From NCBI RefSeq assembly GCF_003399445.1, contig NZ_QUQO01000001.1, positions 2,477,001 through 2,541,000 on the forward strand: a DNA stretch of 64,000 nucleotides, written 5' to 3'. A program made the position numbers and the translations under genes. The notes under the pieces were generated by a model that was given only the letters and a program-made list of their open reading frames with translations, ran no database searches and was not told where the DNA came from. Below, one piece after another: positions 42,155-52,454 of the stretch; within the stretch, counting starts at the first letter, position 1; each line of letters starts with the position of its first letter. This stretch comes from Parvularcula marina (lineage in GTDB: Bacteria; Pseudomonadota; Alphaproteobacteria; Caulobacterales; Parvularculaceae).

Positions 42155-42674
42155 GTTCTGCTTCTGCCTCGCGGTCCCATTGTTCGATCACCGCAGGGTA
42201 ATCGTTCCGGTCCGAAGCGTCGATGCGACGGATCTGTTTGACCGTCCACTCATCCCGAGAAGGCAGCTCAAACATAGTGTCACCATCGATATCGGCCTCG
42301 ATCTGCGTCACATAAAGCCGCTCGGCGCGGGGGAGGGCGAGGGCGTAGATGGCAGCCCCCCCGATGACGCAGATTTCTTCCGCCGCGCCGGCGAGCAGGA
42401 TTGCTTCATCGAGGCTGTTTGCGAGCAGCACGCCTTCGGGCAGGTCGGGCCTGCCGCGCGAGATCACGATATTGAGCCGACCGGGCAAAGGCCGCCCAAG
42501 GCTGTCCCAGGTCGTCCGTCCCATGATGATGGGTTTGCCGGTCGTAATTTCCTTGAACCATTTAAGATCGTCCCGCATCCGCCAGGGAAGATCGCCTTCG
42601 CGCCCGATGACACCATTGCGGGCAATTGCCACGACGAGGCTGAGGATCGGCTCTGGAGAAATGGCCGGGATCAC
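42132..42674 (-). CDS. folA: Dihydrofolate reductase
   Basis: A 180-residue enzyme. Typical sequence: [41 protein letters not shown] and [20 protein letters not shown]. It reduces dihydrofolate to tetrahydrofolate using NADPH. The start is GTG 42674, overlapping the thyA stop (GTGA), so thyA and folA are translationally coupled. An Asp/Glu pair in the [11 protein letters not shown] region is also conserved. A short C-terminal tail is Glu/Ala-rich. Confidence 0.95.
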
Positions 42675-43465
42675 ACGGCCACCGGGGCCTTGATGGCCGG
42701 GTGCGGATCATATCCCGTGACCTTGATGTCGTCATAGGTCCAGCCGAAAATGTCGGTGATCTCCGGGTTCAGCTCGAGCTGCGGCAGTGCGCGCGGGGTG
42801 CGTGAGAGCTGCTCTTTCGCCTGCTCGATATGATTGAGATAGAGATGCGCATCCCCAAAGGAATGGACGAAATCGCCGGGCTCCAGCCCGCAGGATTGCG
42901 CCATCATATGGGTGAGAAGCGCGTAGGACGCGATATTGAACGGCACGCCGAGGAAGATATCCGCCGACCGCTGATAAAGCTGGCAAGAAAGCTTGCCGTC
43001 CGCGACATAGAACTGAAAGAGGCAGTGGCAGGGGGCGAGTGCCATCTGGTCCAGCTGTCCGGGGTTCCATGCGGAGACAACTAGCCGCCGCGAATTGGGA
43101 TTGGTGCGGATTTCATTCTGCACCCACGCGATCTGATCGACCGTGCCGCCATCCGGCTTTGGCCATGACCGCCATTGCTGTCCGTAGACAGGCCCGAGAT
43201 CGCCATTCTCATCCGCCCACTCATCCCAGATCGAGACCTTGTTCTCGGTGAGATAGCCGATATTCGTATCGCCCTTCAGGAACCATAAAAGTTCGTGCAC
43301 GATGGATCGGATATGGCACTTCTTGGTGGTGACCAGCGGGAACCCCTCTGAGAGGTCAAAGCGCATCTGATGGCCGAAGACGCCGCGCGTCCCCGTGCCG
43401 GTGCGGTCGCCGCGTTCCACCCCGTCGTGAAGCGCGCGGGCGAGAAGATCGAGATAGGCTTGCAT
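42671..43465 (-). CDS. thyA: Thymidylate synthase
   Basis: A 264-residue enzyme starting at ATG 43465 (the open frame extends upstream but without homology). Landmarks are [33 protein letters not shown], the active-site Cys in [12 protein letters not shown], and [20 protein letters not shown]. It methylates dUMP to dTMP, making dihydrofolate that the coupled folA product recycles. The length equals that of E. coli ThyA. The upstream gene on the + strand diverges. Confidence 0.97.
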
Positions 43466-43568
43466 GCCCCCAATGTGGCGAAGGCCAGCGCGATTCGAAA
43501 GGGGGCATTGCGCCAGATTGACTTCATTCCGGCCAAGGCAGCATGATCGGCCCGAGGGGACATGGGCC

Positions 43569-44543
43569 ATGCGCGCGATATTCGTATTTCTGCTGATCAG
43601 CGCAGGCATTGTGGCGCTTGCCTTCAATGCCCCCGTCCGCGGATTTGCGGCGGCAACGGCGCTGATCACGCTGATCCTTTCCCTGCCGATGGACCTCAAG
43701 CGCCTTCGGATCGAGCGGCCCTTTTTCTATGGCGATGACGCGTTCGAGCTGGGGGCGATGGCGGCCTGGACGCTCGCTATCGGCAGCGGGATCGCGCGGG
43801 CGCTGGCTGTTGGCGCGGCGGCGCTTTTCACCTTCCCGGCTTTCCTCAGCGAGCCGCAGCTCAAAGTCGTCGGGCTGACCGTCGCCGATCTAGAGATGGA
43901 ACGGATGAGCACGCTTTACGTCTTTCTGATCGTCCTCTTTCTGGCGGTTGTCTCAGGGATGCTGGTCAACCGGTTCACCCAAGGGCTCGGCTATCGCTGG
44001 TCGATGTTCCGCTTCATCTGGCTTTATTGCCTCCTCTTTTCCGTCGGCGCCTTTGCCGCACAAGCAATCTCGCCGGTCGAGCGGCCATCCGCTTTCGCGC
44101 TCGTCGATGTCATCCGCGATGCCGATGATGTGCGGAATGACGCGGTCTGTCCTGATCTTGAAGACGAGATGGCGGCGCTGGAGGCAAAAGAGATCAAGGG
44201 GCCGATTGACTGGCTTTTCGGGACGGGCGCGGATCGCCGCAAGAAAGAGCAGGCCCTGCGCCGGAACCATTGCGGCGTGACACTGGATGCGAGTTTCTCG
44301 AACATCATCTTGGCGGTCTCGACCATGGATGATTTCGTCGACGAGCTGACCCAAAGCGTCGTGGCCGGAACAACATCGACGATTGGGGCGGGGGAAGGGC
44401 CGGGACGGCTGTTCGCCGGGATATTCCTCTCCTCAAACCTCGTTCAGGGGTTTGTCATCGCCATCTATGCGAGCCTGATCCTGATGCTGGCCGCGCCTGT
44501 GCCGGGCCGTGAGCAGGATGGGGGACACGGTCCCTGGTATTGA
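43569..44543 (+). CDS. Hypothetical multi-pass membrane protein
   Basis: A protein of 324 residues from ATG 43569 (GAGGGG about 11 bases upstream). I do not recognise the family. Hydrophobic segments include [78 protein letters not shown] and near the end [14 protein letters not shown] soluble loop of about 100 residues (from about 200) has two Cys residues (DAVCPDLED and RRNHCGVTL). The function is unknown. It precedes the M16 peptidase gene on the same strand. Confidence 0.65.
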
Positions 44544-44631
44544 GGGGACTAAACGGCTCCGCTCAGGGCCGGATGACAGGCTACGCTTTATCGTATAGCA
44601 ATAATTTTTTCGGCGATAGAGGATCGGGCAG

Positions 44632-47493
44632 ATGTCAAAATGGATGATTAGTGCGGGCGGTCTCGCGCTCGTTATGGCGCTTGCGGCCTGTGCTTCAGAC
44701 GAGGGAGGCGCGCGGAGTGCAGACGCCGCCCAGTCGAGCGCGGCGGCGCCTGTCCTCAATGTCTCCTATGAGAAATTCGTCCTCGATAACGGACTGCAAG
44801 TGATCCTGCATCAGGACAGCTCCGATCCTGTCGTCGCCATCAATATCGCCGCCCATGTCGGCTCCTCCCGCGAACTGCCGGGCCGCACCGGCTTTGCGCA
44901 TCTGTTCGAGCACCTCCTTTTCATGGACTCCGAGAATCTCGGCTATGGCGGGCTCGATGAGATGAACACCCGCATCGGCGGGACGACGGTCAACGGTTTT
45001 ACGACCTCTGACATGACCCAGTATTACCAGGATGCCCCGGCCGACGGGCTCGAGAAGATCATCTGGGCCGAGGCCGAGAAGCTCGGCTTTTTCATCAAGA
45101 CTGTCAGCGCCGATGTCCTCGCCAATGAAAAGCAGGTGGTGAAGAACGAGAAGCGGCAAAGTTATGACAACCAGCCTTACGGCTATATGTATCCGCTTTT
45201 CTCCGAACTTCTCTACCCGGAGGATCACCCCTATAGTTGGCCGGTCATCGGATCGCTTGAAGACCTTGATGCCGCAGCCCTCGAAGATGTCGTTGCCTTC
45301 TATAAGCGCTGGTATGTACCGAATAATGTGACGCTGACGATTGCCGGAGATATTGATCCCGCACAGGCGAAGATCTGGGTCGAGAAATACTTCGGTGATA
45401 TTCCGCGCGGGGAAGATATCGCGCCCCTGCCGCCAAGAGCCGCGGAGCTCGAAGACACCGTCTCGCTCTATCACGAGGACCAGTTCGCGCGCGCGCCCCG
45501 GCTGGCGATGGCCTGGCCGTCGGTCGAGCAGTTCCATAAGGACGCATACGCGCTCGATATCCTCACCACCTATCTTGCCGAGGGCAAGAAGGCGCCGCTC
45601 AACATGGTGCTGATCGATGAGGAGAAACTCACCTCCGGTGTCACCATGTATAATTCGACCTCGGAGATTGCAGGGGAGCTCTATCTCATCGTCACGGCGC
45701 AGGAAGGCGGCGATCTTGATGAGCTGATGCCCGCGATTGAGGAAGGCTTCCGGCGCTTTGAGGAAAACGGGATCAGCGAAGACGATCTCAAGCGGATCAA
45801 GGCCGGTATCGAGGTCGAGTTCTATGGGAACCTGCAAAGCGTCGTCGGCAAGGCGATCAGCCTCAGCCAGTATAATCTGTTCACGGGCAATCCCGGTTTC
45901 GTCAGCACGGATATCGAACGCACGCTTGCCGTGACCGCCGATGATGTGATGCGGGTCTATGAGACCTATCTTAAGGACCGCAACTATGTCGCCCTGTCCT
46001 TCGTGCCGCAGGGCCAGCTTGACCTCGTGCTTGAGGGCGCGGGCAAAGCGGACATCAAGGAAGAGGTGATCGTTGAGGGGGAAGGCGCGCCGGTCGATTT
46101 CGATCCGACGGCCCGCACTTTCGAACCGACTCCGTCCGCCTTTGACCGATCGGTGGAGCCGCCCTTCGGTGAGCCCTATGATCTACCGAAACCTGAAATC
46201 TACAAGGCCAACCTGAAAAATGGCATTGCCGTCTATGGCATCACGACGAGCGAAGTGCCGGTCGTGCAATTCAGCCTACGGATTGATGCCGGGCAGGACC
46301 GTGCCGATATCGAGAAGGTCGGGGTGCCGGCCTTAACGGCGGATCTCCTCACGCGCGGGACGGCGAACAAAACCGTCGCGGAGCTTGAAGAGGCCCTTCA
46401 ATTGCTCGGGGCAGAGATCAATATTTCGGCGGGCAGCACGGCGACCTTCATCAGCGGGACGACGTTGGCGCGGAATTTTGACGAGACGGTTGCTCTGCTT
46501 GAGGAAATGCTGCTCGAGCCGCGCTGGGACGAGGAAGAGTTCGATCTTCTCAAGCGCCGGGTGGCGCAGCAATTCGTCCTTGCCAAGGCCAATCCGAATG
46601 CGCTGGCCGGCCGGGTGTCACGCGAGCTTTTCTATGGGGAGGATCACATCTTCCACTATGACAGCTACGGCACCGAGGCGCAGCTTGAGACCATCACGAT
46701 GGAGGACCTCAAGGACTTCCATGCGGCGGCCTACAAGCCGGGCCGTGCGGCTCTGCGGGTCGTGGGCGATGTTAAATTGGTAGACGTCAAAGCCGCTTTC
46801 GCGCCGCTTGCCGCGGACTGGAAAGGCGAGGCGCCTGAAACGGACGCTCCGGCCCAGCCGCAAGATGTGAGCGAGGCGGCTCTATATTTCTATGATGTGC
46901 CGGGCGCGAAGCAATCGGTCATCAGGGCGCAGCGGCCCTCCCTGAGCGCGGTTGATGCGGATTATCCACTGGCGCAGGCGATCAATTATTATCTCGGCGG
47001 CACCTTCACCTCCGATCTCAATAATGAGCTGCGGGTGAACAAGGGTTACACCTATGGGGCCCGCTCTTTCTTCTCCGGCACGGAGGATCGCGGGTTCTAT
47101 ACCGTCTCCACCAGTGTGCGGACGAATGTAACCCTCGAGTCGCTTGAGCTGATCCGGGATCTGCTCGCCAGCTATGGCGAGAGTTTCGATGAGGACCGGC
47201 TGCAGGAAATGAAAGAAGCGCTGCTGCGTCAGCAGGCGCTTCAGACCGAAACACTGGGCGAGAAGCTCGGCGTACTCTCCGAGATCAGCACTTATGGCTA
47301 TCCGGAAGATTATCAGGCGCAGAACGCAGCCCGGCTAGAGGCGGTGGATCTTGCGGAATTCCGCCGTCTTGCGACCACCTATATTCTTCCGGGCGCGATG
47401 AATTATGTCGTGGTCGGAGATGCCGAAACCCAAGCCGGGCGCCTCGGCGACCTTGGCTTCGGTGAGCCGGTGATGGTCGATCCTGTCGAGTAG
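44632..47493 (+). CDS. M16-family zinc peptidase lipoprotein (two-domain, 953 aa)
   Basis: A 953-residue insulinase/pitrilysin-type protease. A lipobox (LAACAS, Cys at about 23) suggests a lipid anchor. The first half has the inverse zinc motif HLFEH (FAHLFEHLLFMD) and the distal Glu in the NEKQVVKNEKRQSY region; the second half has the inactive homologous domain (YKANLKNGIAVYGI, then TADLLTRGT). It likely degrades peptides in the periplasm. Its stop is only two bases from the stop of the convergent NACHT gene, which suggests that something was inserted here. Confidence 0.93.
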   Translation: MSKWMISAGGLALVMALAACASDEGGARSADAAQSSAAAPVLNVSYEKFVLDNGLQVILHQDSSDPVVAINIAAHVGSSRELPGRTGFAHLFEHLLFMDSENLGYGGLDEMNTRIGGTTVNGFTTSDMTQYYQDAPADGLEKIIWAEAEKLGFFIKTVSADVLANEKQVVKNEKRQSYDNQPYGYMYPLFSELLYPEDHPYSWPVIGSLEDLDAAALEDVVAFYKRWYVPNNVTLTIAGDIDPAQAKIWVEKYFGDIPRGEDIAPLPPRAAELEDTVSLYHEDQFARAPRLAMAWPSVEQFHKDAYALDILTTYLAEGKKAPLNMVLIDEEKLTSGVTMYNSTSEIAGELYLIVTAQEGGDLDELMPAIEEGFRRFEENGISEDDLKRIKAGIEVEFYGNLQSVVGKAISLSQYNLFTGNPGFVSTDIERTLAVTADDVMRVYETYLKDRNYVALSFVPQGQLDLVLEGAGKADIKEEVIVEGEGAPVDFDPTARTFEPTPSAFDRSVEPPFGEPYDLPKPEIYKANLKNGIAVYGITTSEVPVVQFSLRIDAGQDRADIEKVGVPALTADLLTRGTANKTVAELEEALQLLGAEINISAGSTATFISGTTLARNFDETVALLEEMLLEPRWDEEEFDLLKRRVAQQFVLAKANPNALAGRVSRELFYGEDHIFHYDSYGTEAQLETITMEDLKDFHAAAYKPGRAALRVVGDVKLVDVKAAFAPLAADWKGEAPETDAPAQPQDVSEAALYFYDVPGAKQSVIRAQRPSLSAVDADYPLAQAINYYLGGTFTSDLNNELRVNKGYTYGARSFFSGTEDRGFYTVSTSVRTNVTLESLELIRDLLASYGESFDEDRLQEMKEALLRQQALQTETLGEKLGVLSEISTYGYPEDYQAQNAARLEAVDLAEFRRLATTYILPGAMNYVVVGDAETQAGRLGDLGFGEPVMVDPVE

Positions 47494-47495
47494 GA

Positions 47496-50324
47496 CTATT
47501 CGTCAGACGGTGGTTGGCAGGTCTCAAGTGCGGGATCGACCAGCGCTTTCTGCCAGTTTTTCGCCGAGGTCAGTTGTGCTTTGGTGAACCCACGGGCCCC
47601 GCGGAAATCAGCGCCGTGAATATTAGCTCCGTGAAAGTTTGTATCGATTAGGTCGGCGCCTCTTAGGTCCGCGCCGCTTAGGTCCGCGCCTCTTAGGTCC
47701 GCGAATCTCAGGTCGGCGTGATTCAGGTTTGCATCTATTAGATCCGTGGCCATCATATCCGCGTGATGCAGGACTGCGTTTGTTAGAACCGCGAGACTCA
47801 GGTGCGCGGTACTTAGACCCGCGTGAGGCAAGACCGCGTCTATCAGGCTTGCTTCCATCAGATTCGCGGCCCCCAGCTGCGCTCCTTTCAAGTTCGAGCG
47901 TGTCAGGTCTGCCTCGGTTAGGGACGCCCCTGTAAAGTTTGCGTGGCTAAAATTTGAATCTCTCAGATCTGCGCCGTATAAGTTTAAGGCCTCCAGATTA
48001 CCATTACTAAGGTTTATTCCATCCAGTCGAGCACTACTGGTGCCAGATCGATCACCAGTCAGATAAAGGCGATCGAGAAGTTGCCGCGATGTGTAATCAA
48101 CCGCGTCATCCGGTAAAGGAGAAATCGGCTCCGCATCGTTATTTTTCTGCATCAAGACGAAACTGACCAAGCTTAAGGCCTGAAGCAGGGTGCCTTCCGC
48201 ATGACGTTGCCGGGTTTCCGCTGCCCGCCAAGTCTCCTTATCGCCGATTTTGACCGGCATGCCCTCCTTCACGGTGACCCTCATGGCATGGGCTAGCGCT
48301 TCGCGGAGATTGTCGAGTTCATCAACGGAACGCAGCATCATCTCACCTTCGATGAAGCCAGCGATTTCTTCTGTCAGAGCCGCGTCGCCTGTCAGCGACA
48401 ACCACTCCTGAAGTTTCTGACTGGTACGGATTTTTCTGAAAGTTGAGAGTGTATTGGGGTCCTTCAGGAAACGGGTGATGCATCTTGCGGCGAGGTATTC
48501 ACCAAAAGTCTTATGGCTAAACTCAAAACCCTTGTTCTGCGCGGATGAGTTCCTGAAAAAGAAGCTCAGTGCCAGTGTCGAGAAGCCCTCCGTCGAAGGC
48601 TCAAGGCTGTTCGGGCCTGCCATTTCATTGAGAAATTTTTCCCAGATCGCTTCAGCATCCTGATTCTCGATTGCGCTTAAGAAGCCGTTGTAATCAGCAG
48701 ACCGTGGATCACCGCTCCGCCACGCAGCGAGGGCAATAAATTCAAGAACCTGTTCAAATTCATCTTGATTATCGAAAGCTAAAATAGGCCCCTTCTTACC
48801 TTCCCGCTCGCGCCGTTCCCAGACTTCATCAATCAAACTCTGATAGACAACATTTCGGTTCGTAATTTCCTTATCAAAGCTTTCCTTGGCGAGGCCCGTA
48901 AGGGCGAGGAGATAGCAGAGCAGTGGTTCAAATGTCAGTGTGCCGAGGCTTTGATCGCTGAGAACCGGCGGCGTTCTTGAGCGGAGTTTTTCGTTCTTGA
49001 GAGCCGTGACATATCTTGACCAGAATAGGCTGCGCTGATCGCTGTTATCAACCGGCTCTGCTGCTTCGAATTCCTCCAGGTTTTCATATCCGCAGACATG
49101 GTAAATTTGTGTGCGCGGCATTTCTCTGGCGAGGTAGTGACCTAACGCAGCCTGGATGATGGGATCGCGGCCCGAGACGATTGCCCGCGCCCGGATCTCA
49201 CCTCCATCGTTCATCAATTTCATGAGTTTGTTGAGGCTGACCCAGAAAGACTCAGCGACTTCTTTCGCGCCGCCGCTTTGAGGAAATACCAGTTCATCCA
49301 AGCCGTCGAAAATCAGGACAAACGGCCTGCTAGCACTCGCATCGGCTAATGGGTGCGACTCGAAATGCCGCTTTTCATCGCAAAATCGTGTTTCTATCCT
49401 TGCTCTCAAATCGTCGGTGTCTTCAATGTGCTGAAGATCGACAAAGATCGGGCGATAATTCGCGTTCTTCGCAAGTTTGGCAGCGTACATTTTCGCGAAG
49501 GAAGATTTTCCACAACCCGGACCGCCCGAAAGCACGGCAACAGCGTGATCCTTGGAACACTGCGTCGAGAGCCACTTGTCCAAATCGTGCGCCAAGCTGA
49601 CCAAGTACTCTGGTAGTGCGTCTTTCTTGTCGACCTTGGCTCGTCGGGCTCTTGTATCGATGTAGAGATCACTCAGTGTGACGCCGGTTTCCTCTTGTCC
49701 CCAAATTGGCTCTTTTTCAACCATGTCAATCAGATGTTGGCGGTAGGCGAACCAATCGTCTTCCAACTTGGCGGCCTCGAAGCCGCTGGCCGCGCGTTCG
49801 CGCAAGTCACCAAACAAATCACCACCATCAGCCGTCAGAAAGTGGAGGGCAGTCGACATGACGCCATGCAATTGTCCGTAGGCATCGGATGGAATATTCT
49901 TCTCGCCGTCAATCGCCGCGAAAAACCCATCCCGCAAGAGATTATATAGAGGGGTATCAGCTGGCTTCTCAAAAAATTTCGGTGTCAGGAAGAAATCCTG
50001 CGTGCGAAGTTCTTCGACCGCAGTTTCCATGGACGCAATCGCCGCGTCATGTTTGTTTGTGTGTTCATCGCCGGGGAACACCTGATCTACGGCGTGCGAA
50101 AAGCAGAGTCCGACCAAGTACCAAGCTCGGCTCCCCGGCGGTTCCTCCAGAACAACTGTTTTGCGAAGTGATTTGATGAACGTCGCCAGGGCGCGCGGAG
50201 ATGTCGCCCCGCTCATTGCTGTGATCGCGCCGACCGCACTCGCGTCTACGGATGAGTCGAACAATGCTCCCCAGTTGATTTCGATCGATTTCTGCGGCGG
50301 TAAAATCTGGATACCGACTGACAT
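47496..50324 (-). CDS. NACHT (STAND) ATPase with C-terminal pentapeptide repeats
   Basis: A 942-residue protein. Residues 1-250 form a helical N-terminal region I do not recognise. The NTPase has Walker A GGPGCGKSS (267-275), Walker B FVLIFDGLDEL (335-345) and IVSGRD (382-387), typical of NACHT/STAND proteins. A helical region follows (about 430-760). Residues 763-908 are about 29 pentapeptide repeats (A[DN]LXX type), ending FTKAQLTSAKNW. STAND proteins sense ligands and oligomerise; many bacterial NACHT proteins act in phage defence. Bases are poor in G+C for the window (24/60 at 48721-48780). The gene lies downstream of an XRE gene. Confidence 0.85.
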   Translation of the reverse strand: MSVGIQILPPQKSIEINWGALFDSSVDASAVGAITAMSGATSPRALATFIKSLRKTVVLEEPPGSRAWYLVGLCFSHAVDQVFPGDEHTNKHDAAIASMETAVEELRTQDFFLTPKFFEKPADTPLYNLLRDGFFAAIDGEKNIPSDAYGQLHGVMSTALHFLTADGGDLFGDLRERAASGFEAAKLEDDWFAYRQHLIDMVEKEPIWGQEETGVTLSDLYIDTRARRAKVDKKDALPEYLVSLAHDLDKWLSTQCSKDHAVAVLSGGPGCGKSSFAKMYAAKLAKNANYRPIFVDLQHIEDTDDLRARIETRFCDEKRHFESHPLADASASRPFVLIFDGLDELVFPQSGGAKEVAESFWVSLNKLMKLMNDGGEIRARAIVSGRDPIIQAALGHYLAREMPRTQIYHVCGYENLEEFEAAEPVDNSDQRSLFWSRYVTALKNEKLRSRTPPVLSDQSLGTLTFEPLLCYLLALTGLAKESFDKEITNRNVVYQSLIDEVWERREREGKKGPILAFDNQDEFEQVLEFIALAAWRSGDPRSADYNGFLSAIENQDAEAIWEKFLNEMAGPNSLEPSTEGFSTLALSFFFRNSSAQNKGFEFSHKTFGEYLAARCITRFLKDPNTLSTFRKIRTSQKLQEWLSLTGDAALTEEIAGFIEGEMMLRSVDELDNLREALAHAMRVTVKEGMPVKIGDKETWRAAETRQRHAEGTLLQALSLVSFVLMQKNNDAEPISPLPDDAVDYTSRQLLDRLYLTGDRSGTSSARLDGINLSNGNLEALNLYGADLRDSNFSHANFTGASLTEADLTRSNLKGAQLGAANLMEASLIDAVLPHAGLSTAHLSLAVLTNAVLHHADMMATDLIDANLNHADLRFADLRGADLSGADLRGADLIDTNFHGANIHGADFRGARGFTKAQLTSAKNWQKALVDPALETCQPPSDE

Positions 50325-50416
50325 AGACGCTCCTTCAATTGAGCATTATGCCTATTTCTCCCGGTGATATAAGTGAACCCAAATCTACACCTTTACGGCG
50401 AAATTGAATTGTCACC

Positions 50417-50731
50417 TCAGGCAGCCTTGTCGGTGTCCTCTTTTTCGTCCTTGGGGTCTTTGACCTCTTTGACTTCTTTTGCGTCCTTGCCGTCTTCGGC
50501 GCGGTCGACCTTTTTGGACGGCCCCCGATAATTGGTGACGCCAACAGAGAGGGCATAACAGGCAAGGGCGACAGAAAGGGGGATGTGAACGTTTTCGCCG
50601 TCCCGCTCGCCCTTTTCATAATACTGGATCATCCGCCGTTTCAGCCCGAGGGCGTCCGCGGCGTCTTTCTGCGAGTATCCAAGTGACTTTCGCCACTTTT
50701 TGAAATCGTGAGGCTCCATCCGTTTTCCCAC
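50417..50731 (-). CDS. XRE-type helix-turn-helix regulator
   Basis: A 104-residue protein from GTG 50731 (GGGGAG eight bases upstream) or ATG 50719. Residues about 8-35 hold an XRE/Cro helix-turn-helix (KKWRKSLGYSQKDAADALGL, then KRRMIQYYEKGE). The last 35 residues are an unusual Lys/Asp/Glu-rich low-complexity tail (KDAKEVKEVKDPKDEKEDTD). It likely represses its own promoter and the NACHT gene about 90 bases downstream. The tail is probably disordered. Confidence 0.8.
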   Translation of the reverse strand: MGKRMEPHDFKKWRKSLGYSQKDAADALGLKRRMIQYYEKGERDGENVHIPLSVALACYALSVGVTNYRGPSKKVDRAEDGKDAKEVKEVKDPKDEKEDTDKAA

Positions 50732-50889
50732 CGGTCGAGCTCCCCGCTATCGACTGTCCATGCCCGCTATATAAGGGATTTTTGTTGCAGACTCGTAACA
50801 GACAGGCGCGCGATGTGCGTATTTTTTCGACAGTTGTCGGTGCGTTACGGGCCGCGCGCTCTTCAAACCTTCACCCTTGGACGCTATAT
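50732..50889. promoter_or_regulatory. Divergent promoter region between XRE gene and ssrA
   Basis: About 160 bases with no gene. For the minus-strand XRE gene, TTACGA and TTATAT are spaced by 18 bases (about 50775-50804), a possible promoter. CTATATAAG at about 50767-50776 also stands out. For ssrA I cannot choose a promoter with certainty. Control sites for both units should be here. Confidence 0.4.
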
Positions 50890-51236
50890 GTGTCCGTGAT
50901 GCTTCGGTATCTATGGCGATAAATGGCGCTCGTAATAAGCGGCCCGGACCCGGGGGCGGTACCCGGCGGCTCCACCAGAGGCCTCACGACGATAAGTGGT
51001 GTGAGGATTGTGGCGGGGCCGAAATAGTATCGACGGACGTGTAAAGGTTCTGCTTTCGCTCGGATGGTCTCCGTTATTGGGCCACTTAGAATAGTTGCAA
51101 ATGACAACTCTTCGGAAGGTTTCGCTCTCGCTGCGTAACGCAGTGCGAGAAAACCGCATTTAAGTCCCAGACCCATCCCGGTCTGGGCGGGGTCCCGGCG
51201 AACCTGGCAACAGAATCGCCGACTTTATCCCTCTCC
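50890..51236 (+). ncRNA. ssrA: tmRNA, permuted two-piece form
   Basis: The acceptor piece comes first, ending GGCTCCACCA at 50977. An intervening segment of about 37 bases follows, then the coding piece begins GGGGCCGAAA at 51015. GGGGCCG (51015-51021) pairs with CGGCTCC (50967-50973), the acceptor stem. The tag frame lies at 51097-51138. The CCGGG/CCCGG T stem has the unusual T loop GGCGGTA. An 8-bp hairpin is at 51166-51187. The ends 50890 and 51236 are estimates. tmRNA rescues stalled ribosomes and tags the nascent chain for degradation. Confidence 0.9.
51097..51138 (+). other. tmRNA tag-encoding frame
   Basis: GCA at 51097 starts the tag ANDNSSEGFALAA and TAA is at 51136-51138. The Ala-Ala end is the usual signal for ClpXP-type proteases. 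The stop lies in a stem formed by CTCGC and GCGAG around TGCGTAACGCA. Confidence 0.92.
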
Positions 51237-51335: not shown

Positions 51336-52454
51336 ATGAAGTCAAAAAAACGAATTTGCGCGATCTTGCTTGCCGCGACGGCGTTCGGTGTGGCGCAGGC
51401 GCAGGAGGAGCCGGTCGAACCGGTTGAGCCGTCAGAATTCCCGCCGCTTTATGAAGATCTCGAGCGCGAGGAAATCGAGCGGAATATTCCGATCCCGGAG
51501 CGGATCGAAGAAGAGGATACAGGCTCTGAGAATGCCGAGGCAATGGAGCTTGAGCTTGATCTCTCACCCGATCCAGCACTGATGTCGTTCGCCGCCCTGC
51601 TGGAGGAGGGCAAGGCGGAAATCGTCCTTGAGGGGACAAAGACGCAAAGTGAGGCGATGCTACTGGCCGCAGAATACGGCATCGCGATGAGCCAGATGCC
51701 AGAGGCGTTGCAAATCCTCGGCACGCGGGCGCTTCTTTTTCAGAAATCAACAGGCCGGGTTCTGGCCGCCATCCGGCTGCCCGATGGGGTGCGCCGGAAC
51801 AAGGAGAAGGTGAATCCTGAAATCCGCATGTTCGGCCGGGAGAATGGCCAGATCGCTATCGAGTATCGCGGGTGGCATACGGATAAATATGAATTCGAAA
51901 AATGCACCATCATCTTTGAATATCAGGTGAATGTCGTTGACCGGAACCTTGCGTCAAAGAAAACCTTCGGGCGCATCCAGCGGCCTTATGAATATATCAA
52001 GGTGCTCTCCCAGCCGGTTGACGGCACGAACGGACTATATGTCCTCGTGATCCCCACGGTTGAGGTGAACAAGAAAAAGATCGGCCAGCCTTTCACCGAA
52101 ACGCATCTGGCGATTACGCAAAGCCGGAAAGGCGCCAATCCCGCAAAGACGATCGACATGCCTAAGGTCGAACGGTGGCTGGTCGTGGAGCATGAGCTTG
52201 TCCATGCCGAGCAGATCTATCGCGCCTATACGCAGACCGTCCGTAAGCTGGTGAGTGATAACAAGCTCTGTAATCCAACTAAACCGATCGCGCGGCACAG
52301 GGCGATCCTGCAGAAAACCTTCACCGCCAATTGGATAAAAATGACAGCATCCGGTCATGGCGGCAGTCATGAGCAGGGCACCTATCCGAACACGCCGGCT
52401 GAAACGGAAGCCCGTGAAGTGATGTGGCGGCTATGGGATGCGCGTAACCCGTGA
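51336..52454 (+). CDS. Secreted protein with HELVH motif, possible metalloprotease
   Basis: A 372-residue protein from ATG 51336 (GGGGAGG five bases upstream). A signal peptide ends AQA, followed by a Pro/Glu-rich stretch (about 25-80). The rest is a mixed domain; near the end the motif is EHELVHAEQ with His286, Glu287 and His290, the form of a zinc HExxH site. The third ligand is not evident; later Glu and His residues (EQGTYPNTPAETEARE) are candidates. I do not recognise the family (DUF922-like is one guess). It may be a periplasmic peptidase. Confidence 0.65.
   Translation: MKSKKRICAILLAATAFGVAQAQEEPVEPVEPSEFPPLYEDLEREEIERNIPIPERIEEEDTGSENAEAMELELDLSPDPALMSFAALLEEGKAEIVLEGTKTQSEAMLLAAEYGIAMSQMPEALQILGTRALLFQKSTGRVLAAIRLPDGVRRNKEKVNPEIRMFGRENGQIAIEYRGWHTDKYEFEKCTIIFEYQVNVVDRNLASKKTFGRIQRPYEYIKVLSQPVDGTNGLYVLVIPTVEVNKKKIGQPFTETHLAITQSRKGANPAKTIDMPKVERWLVVEHELVHAEQIYRAYTQTVRKLVSDNKLCNPTKPIARHRAILQKTFTANWIKMTASGHGGSHEQGTYPNTPAETEAREVMWRLWDARNP

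What the first reader, a model, noticed from the sequence alone, without database searches (positions are those of the whole stretch)
47496..50731. XRE plus NACHT/pentapeptide module next to ssrA: candidate new defence or sensor system
A two-gene minus-strand unit: an XRE regulator with a charged tail and a 942-residue NACHT ATPase with a complete Walker A/B core, an N-terminal domain I cannot place (1-250) and about 29 pentapeptide repeats at the C-terminus. The NACHT gene is poorer in G+C (24 of 60 at 48721-48780, 27 of 60 at 48481-48540; a neighbouring line in the M16 gene, 47401-47460, has 37 of 60). It fills the space between a core-like M16 gene and ssrA, a usual integration site. NACHT proteins of bacteria have been shown to act in antiphage defence; pentapeptide repeats as the sensing end are uncommon in what I know.
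Basis: partly seen in the sequence, partly recalled or inferred. Interest (0 to 1): 0.78.

Follow-up and report, generated by a model that had tools for sequence, protein, structure and literature searches.

The report
Lone NLR-like receptor with pentapeptide solenoid
The finding is a stand-alone bacterial protein built like the NLR immune sensors of animals, apparently acquired on its own beside an ordinary resident regulator gene; it is an untested member of a known kind rather than a new two-gene defence system.

Summary
The large gene is real: a 942-aa STAND/NACHT protein with intact Walker A/B and about 30 pentapeptide repeats, in the two lowest-G+C kilobases of the window. The "XRE plus NACHT unit" is not supported. 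In all 31 other family loci examined that hold both, XRE lies divergently beside ssrA, and none has the NACHT gene there. The NACHT gene sits with two other genes between thyA and XRE, which lie 113-273 bp apart (alignment ends) in five relatives. It is on the 5' side of ssrA; the window shows no integrase and no second copy of the ssrA end.

The "unplaceable" N-terminus belongs with the domain Pfam calls NNH3: direct Pfam search misses it, but a profile of 43 homologous N-termini without it scores 82 bits (best of 1000 shuffles 6.8). I found 59 loci of a rare, patchy family of similar build, with no partner gene recurring across genera. The model resembles NLRC4 and NOD2. The pentapeptide end diverges fastest, as a sensor might.

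Best reading: a single-gene NLR-type receptor, probably antiphage, with a helical, apparently non-enzymatic effector/adaptor. Function is inferred. Against: no defence-model match, few defence genes nearby, and retention at fixed sites in two genera.

The parts
47496..50324 (-). NACHT-type STAND receptor gene, 942 aa, NNH3-like - NACHT - pentapeptide
49575..50324 (-). N-terminal all-helical region, residues 1-250, NNH3-like
   Evidence: Profile of 43 homologous N-termini without the window: 82 bits on 1-248, 50.8 on 1-190; best of 1000 shuffles 6.8. No direct Pfam NNH3 hit
48120..49574 (-). NACHT ATPase with helical and winged-helix parts, residues 251-735
   Evidence: Walker A 267-274, Walker B 339-344, R386, P467, H604 conserved in 50 members; Foldseek to NLRC4/NOD2
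47586..48035 (-). Pentapeptide solenoid, about residues 764-913, about 30 repeats
   Evidence: PF00805 E 1.7e-32; strand every 5 residues, block pLDDT about 95-98 for most of it
50417..50731 (-). XRE-type HTH gene; resident neighbour of ssrA, judged NOT part of the system by descent
   Evidence: 31 of 31 other family loci divergent from ssrA, no NACHT there
50883..51229 (+). ssrA (tmRNA)
   Evidence: ARAGORN
44632..47493 (+). M16 peptidase gene, convergent with the NACHT gene; part of the extra block between thyA and XRE
   Evidence: best genus match 42% and elsewhere
43569..44543 (+). ORF43k, no Pfam match; part of the same extra block
   Evidence: found in 1 of 10 genus genomes, the own one; no Pfam family
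42671..43465 (-). thyA, left border of the block
   Evidence: thyA homologs lie on XRE's strand in 21 fetched loci; name from my reading of the sequence

Best explanation
A single-gene STAND/NLR-type receptor, most likely acquired horizontally. SHOWN by sequence or model: NNH3-like helical N-terminus, intact NACHT ATPase with an NLR-like fold, pentapeptide solenoid; absence from nearly all family genomes searched; no partner gene recurring across genera; a fast-diverging C-terminal region among homologs. INFERRED: the protein rests in an ADP-bound, closed state; the solenoid recognises an intracellular trigger, most likely a phage protein or a phage-disturbed host protein; nucleotide exchange lets the NACHT parts oligomerise; the clustered N-terminal bundles then stop growth or recruit another factor, so that infection aborts. 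The neighbouring XRE gene is a resident ssrA-linked gene and not an inherited partner, although read-through from it across the 92-bp gap is possible.
For: Architecture and motifs; NLRC4 E 4.4e-11 and NOD2 E 2.8e-10 by Foldseek; 59 relatives with the receptor as a stand-alone gene; presence/absence and composition; in 16 of 16 homolog pairs with at least 60% NACHT identity the C-terminal region is less identical than NACHT, and dN is higher in 11 of 11 pairs tested. Bacterial NACHT proteins with this tripartite logic (effector-NACHT-sensor) protect against phage in E. coli (PMC12169576, passages).
Against: No PADLOC model at E<=0.001 for the window protein. Among 131 neighbour proteins of homologs only scattered defence or mobile-element matches, in lists capped at 25 families. 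Four Pseudoalteromonas and three Psychrobacter species keep the gene between the same neighbours, more like a resident gene than a shuttling defence gene. The fast C-terminal divergence could be relaxed constraint or repeat slippage: dN/dS stays below 1 where dS is defined and dS is saturated in several pairs. Whole-chain TM-scores to NLRs are only about 0.3. Absence from relatives could also be loss. No trigger or effector activity is known.
Confidence: 0.55

Rival explanations
1. A STAND-type signalling or stress-response protein that is not antiphage: it senses a cellular state through the solenoid and acts through the NNH3 region as an adaptor.
For: Ordinary neighbourhoods of homologs; conserved position in Pseudoalteromonas and Psychrobacter; three homologs (L170, L174, L186) carry roughly 150 further residues in front of the NNH3-like region, as if that region were a linker; one distant relative (L004) has a different, short N-terminus.
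Against: Rare and patchy: 4 of 385 class genomes including the own one; fast-diverging C-terminal region.
Confidence: 0.28
2. One reading: XRE and NACHT form one two-gene defence or sensor module inserted at ssrA.
For: Same strand with a 92-bp gap; no sigma-70-like promoter match between them in a simple scan.
Against: XRE lies beside ssrA without NACHT in 31 of 31 other loci; no partner recurs across genera at homologous receptor loci; no integrase or second copy of a 26-nt stretch near the ssrA 3' end in the window.
Confidence: 0.05
3. Inert or decaying cargo: a foreign gene kept by chance, without function in this host.
For: Divergent (at most 33% identity to any aligned relative) and of odd composition; some relatives are split by insertion sequences or stops.
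Against: The window frame is intact over 942 codons and keeps the conserved ATPase residues.
Confidence: 0.12

Closest known systems
Bacterial NACHT (bNACHT) antiphage proteins, e.g. bNACHT25 (PMC12169576, passages read; the founding paper PMC10294775 is not held)
   Same: Stand-alone protein with N-terminal domain, central NACHT, C-terminal sensor-like region; patchy distribution
   Different: bNACHT25 has a PD-(D/E)XK nuclease in front and a helical NCH1 domain behind; here a helical NNH3-like domain without obvious active site and a pentapeptide solenoid. Antiphage activity untested here
Pfam NNH3 (PF22735), NACHT N-terminal helical domain 3
   Same: 36 of 50 aligned family members match it; the window N-terminus matches a profile of its homologs
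   Different: The window N-terminus itself is not found by the Pfam model; I found no function for NNH3 in the papers searched
Animal NLRs (NLRC4, NOD2, NLRPs)
   Same: NACHT and following helical/winged-helix parts by Foldseek
   Different: [quoted passage not shown] NNH3-like region in place of CARD/PYD (recalled); whole-chain TM-scores about 0.3
Pentapeptide proteins HetL, MfpA, QnrB1, AlbG
   Same: Right-handed pentapeptide solenoid fold by sequence and structure
   Different: Here it is the C-terminal part of an ATPase; gyrase binding (recalled for MfpA and Qnr) is not tested, and scores are far below the NCBIfam cut-offs for those proteins
Avs/AVAST antiphage STAND ATPases
   Same: STAND ATPase as central switch (recalled)
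   Different: No PADLOC match of the window protein at E<=0.001; different N- and C-terminal parts

Membership tests
NACHT-type STAND NTPase (bNACHT / NLR-related) | Walker A, Walker B with DGLDE-type acidic cluster, downstream conserved P and winged-helix H | tested here: met
   Pfam NACHT below cut-off for the window alone, 43 of 50 members at E<=0.001
NACHT-type STAND NTPase (bNACHT / NLR-related) | NLR-like fold of the ATPase and following helical parts | tested here: met
   Foldseek NLRC4 4.4e-11, NOD2 2.8e-10, on a predicted model
NACHT-type STAND NTPase (bNACHT / NLR-related) | Demonstrated protection against phage | not testable with these tools
   needs experiment
NACHT-type STAND NTPase (bNACHT / NLR-related) | Placement in a published bNACHT clade | not tested
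   reference set not held
NNH3 (PF22735) | Score over the Pfam cut-off | tested here: not met
   no hit for residues 1-250 even at E<=10
NNH3 (PF22735) | Homology to proteins that do match NNH3 | tested here: met
   82 bits to a profile of 43 homologous N-termini excluding the window, shuffles at most 6.8
Pentapeptide repeat (PF00805) | Tandem pentapeptides folding as a solenoid | tested here: met
Avs/AVAST and other catalogued defence systems | Match to a PADLOC model | tested here: not met
   0 families at E<=0.001 for the window protein; best weak match mad8 E 0.0062
XRE-NACHT two-gene module | The two genes travel together | tested here: not met
Genomic island integrated at ssrA | Integrase and duplicated ssrA 3' end beside the insert | tested here: not met
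   one copy only of a 26-nt stretch near the 3' end, up to 3 mismatches; five integrase genes in the genome, none in the window stretch

The most novel reading that the evidence does not exclude
An NLR with a DNA-shaped bait: the pentapeptide solenoid, of the fold by which Qnr and MfpA imitate DNA for gyrase (recalled), serves as an integrated decoy that traps phage DNA-binding proteins or senses attack on gyrase, and switches the NACHT on. The window's C-terminal region is acidic (net -12 over 207 residues), but acidity is not a family rule (35 of 50 negative, 15 zero or positive).
Probability: 0.08. Interest if true: 0.8.

Novelty: new member of a known kind. Interest (0 to 1): 0.36.

Why it matters
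If it is antiphage, it would add a rare NLR-like family, found in at least 11 phyla in the tree made here, that may read its trigger with a beta-solenoid instead of leucine-rich or helical repeats. Homolog pairs with near-identical switches but different solenoids would make swapping tests of sensing direct. As a correction it shows how gene order beside ssrA can mislead: the XRE gene is resident, the NACHT gene is the newcomer.

Tried and rejected
Two-gene unit: not supported. ssrA integration: no sign in the window. Membrane-inserting N-terminus: the best 19-residue hydropathy in the region aligned to window residues 1-61 averages 0.97 against 1.10 in shuffles (48 of 50 rows, 2 dropped as too short; 5 of 48 reach 1.6), so not a family trait. 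Enzymatic N-terminus: no catalytic-type residue is near invariant; the best conserved polar ones are R225 (86%), R151 (74%, Q in the window) and E213 (68%, T in the window). Solved fold for the N-terminus: none at E<=0.001 by Foldseek; best by sequence profile E 0.41. Acidic DNA mimicry as a family trait: 35 of 50 negative. Recurring partner gene within 6 kb (568 neighbour proteins, blastp 1e-8): the largest groups are sequences like the receptor itself (split pieces or second copies, not each inspected; 8 loci), ABC-type ATPases (6 loci), and groups of at most 4 loci that are chiefly synteny within Pseudoalteromonas or Psychrobacter. First genome-contig scan with the whole protein found nothing; the second, with A2, gave 76 loci. 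I treat 59 (L129-L187) as family and 17 weaker ones (L188-L204) as more distant; 10 of the 59 with split, cut or partial frames were left out of A3. tblastn: 2 plasmid records, 0 phage records. Literature: searches; no functional study of an NNH3-NACHT-pentapeptide protein stood out in the listings (one search listed 30 of 44 papers). The main bNACHT paper is not held, so novelty in print is not established.

Full report
What is there. The 942-codon frame at 47496-50324 (-) is intact. Pfam finds strong pentapeptide repeats, an AAA match over its cut-off and a NACHT match below it (21.0 vs 26.7 bits); residues 1-245 match nothing. The XRE frame (50417-50731, -) has an HTH_3 match and a charged tail. 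ssrA lies at 50883-51229 (+). The two lowest of 64 one-kb G+C bins are 48001-50000 (0.510, 0.524). GC3 is 0.577 for the NACHT gene against 0.724 (M16), 0.755 (thyA), 0.751 (ORF43k), 0.657 (XRE) and 0.662 (the cytochrome-like ORF).

The pair is not a unit. XRE is found in 32 of 61 genomes searched, the own one included; all 32 are of the same family, of which 37 were searched. In 31 of the 34 other loci examined both XRE and ssrA were found; in 31 of 31 they are divergent, in 30 within 249 bp by alignment ends, in one 518 bp; the three without XRE are genus members G003, G005 and G009. None of those 34 loci holds a match to the NACHT region or to M16. The NACHT profile without repeats matches 2 of 62 family genomes: this one and a weak, partial match in G023, on another contig than its XRE gene. 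thyA lies on the same strand as XRE in 21 of the loci. Its distance by alignment ends is 113-128 bp in G006, G002, G008 and G023 and 273 bp in G024, but 986 bp in G007 and 5808 bp in G004, where unrelated genes lie between. The window has ORF43k, M16 and NACHT there. ORF43k is found in 1 of 10 genus genomes, its own; the best M16 relatives in the other 9 are 42% identical and elsewhere. So thyA-XRE is a variable spot and the NACHT gene most likely an acquisition, although loss in relatives is not excluded. It lies 5' of ssrA; the window has no second copy of a 26-nt stretch near the ssrA 3' end and no Phage_integrase gene.

The family. A profile scan of the genome-contig collection gave 76 loci; 59 (L129-L187) are clear relatives (tblastn E below 1e-20). 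49 complete frames and the window were aligned (A3); the tree rows fall in 11 named phylum-level groups. 48 of 50 match pentapeptides, 43 NACHT and 36 NNH3 (PF22735) at E<=0.001. The window N-terminus has no direct NNH3 hit, but a profile of 43 homologous N-termini that excludes it scores 82 bits on residues 1-248 and 50.8 on 1-190, against 6.8 for the best of 1000 shuffles. In the tree the window lies in a set of 15 rows (13 Pseudomonadota, one Ignavibacteriota and itself; support 99/95) on a long branch, at most 33% identical to any row; its exact place is unsure. Prevalence is low: 4 of 385 class genomes with the 732-aa query, 3 of 385 with the N-terminal profile, both counts including the own genome, which is in that profile; 5 of 398 phylum genomes with Pfam NNH3, which misses the own genome.

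Anatomy and mechanism. The model (mean pLDDT 83.0, pTM 0.76) has an all-helical N-terminus, a NACHT ATPase with helical and winged-helix parts, and a solenoid. Foldseek pairs it with pentapeptide proteins and with NLRC4 (E 4.4e-11), NOD2 (2.8e-10) and NLRPs, at whole-chain TM-scores near 0.3. The ATPase motifs are conserved; the N-terminus conserves mostly structural residues and has no hydrophobic helix above shuffles as a family trait; its own model has no PDB match at E<=0.001. That it works by clustering, as effector or adaptor, is inference.

Sensor evidence. In 16 of 16 homolog pairs with at least 60% NACHT identity (7 clusters, so not independent) the C-terminal region is less identical than NACHT, e.g. 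72 vs 94% and 59 vs 88%. dN is higher there in 11 of 11 pairs tested, e.g. 0.168 vs 0.035 at dS of about 0.5 in both. dN/dS stays below 1 where dS is defined and dS is saturated in several pairs, so this shows speed, not positive selection.

Against defence. The window protein has no PADLOC match at E<=0.001. Of 131 neighbour proteins of homologs, the tables (first 25 families only) show one type IV restriction-like match, one reverse transcriptase and three integrases among housekeeping families. Four Pseudoalteromonas and three Psychrobacter species keep the gene between the same neighbours. The lack of a partner recurring across genera fits a single-protein system but gives no functional hint.

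Known or new. The tripartite logic is that of bacterial NACHT proteins with shown antiphage activity (PMC12169576, passages). Pentapeptide repeats as superstructure-forming domains of conflict systems are discussed in PMC7159879 and PMC8195603 (passages). PMC10853773 notes Orc/CDC6 proteins fused to NACHT or to pentapeptides (passage), a different protein. No functional study of the NNH3-NACHT-pentapeptide build stood out in the nine searches, but the main bNACHT paper is not held. I file it as a new, diverged member of a known kind.

Noticed in passing
window 50417-51229; loci L063-L081, L109, L113-L123: An XRE-type gene lies divergently beside ssrA in 31 of 31 family loci holding both: a conserved pair whose reason is unknown, perhaps regulation linked to trans-translation.
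   Followed up: partly
window 43466-50416: The thyA-XRE junction is variable in the genus: 113-128 bp in G002, G006 and G008, 986 bp in G007, 5.8 kb of other genes in G004, three genes here.
   Followed up: partly
window 51336-52454 (+): ORF between ssrA and the GNAT-like ORF, 374 aa frame from 51330, no Pfam family over cut-off and no NCBIfam family; found in 1 of 10 genus genomes, its own. In G007 ssrA is followed directly by the GNAT gene.
   Followed up: partly
L150, L163, L178 (Psychrobacter): Mosaic receptors: L150/L163 are 82% identical in the N-terminus but 64% in NACHT; L163/L178 49% and 65%, which suggests domain exchange.
   Followed up: no
L088 5206-9345; L085 724-3392; L134, L146, L161, L185: Homologs split by an IS256-type element on a Skermanella plasmid, apparently by a transposase gene in G253, or into two frames in four MAG/genome loci.
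   Followed up: no
L170 3622-4104, L174 8831-9280, L186 8846-9310: Three related homologs carry roughly 150 extra residues in front of the NNH3-like region; no Pfam match at E<=1.
   Followed up: partly
L004 946-3579 (+): A distant relative in the same order with a NACHT core and degenerate pentapeptides but a shorter, different N-terminus.
   Followed up: no
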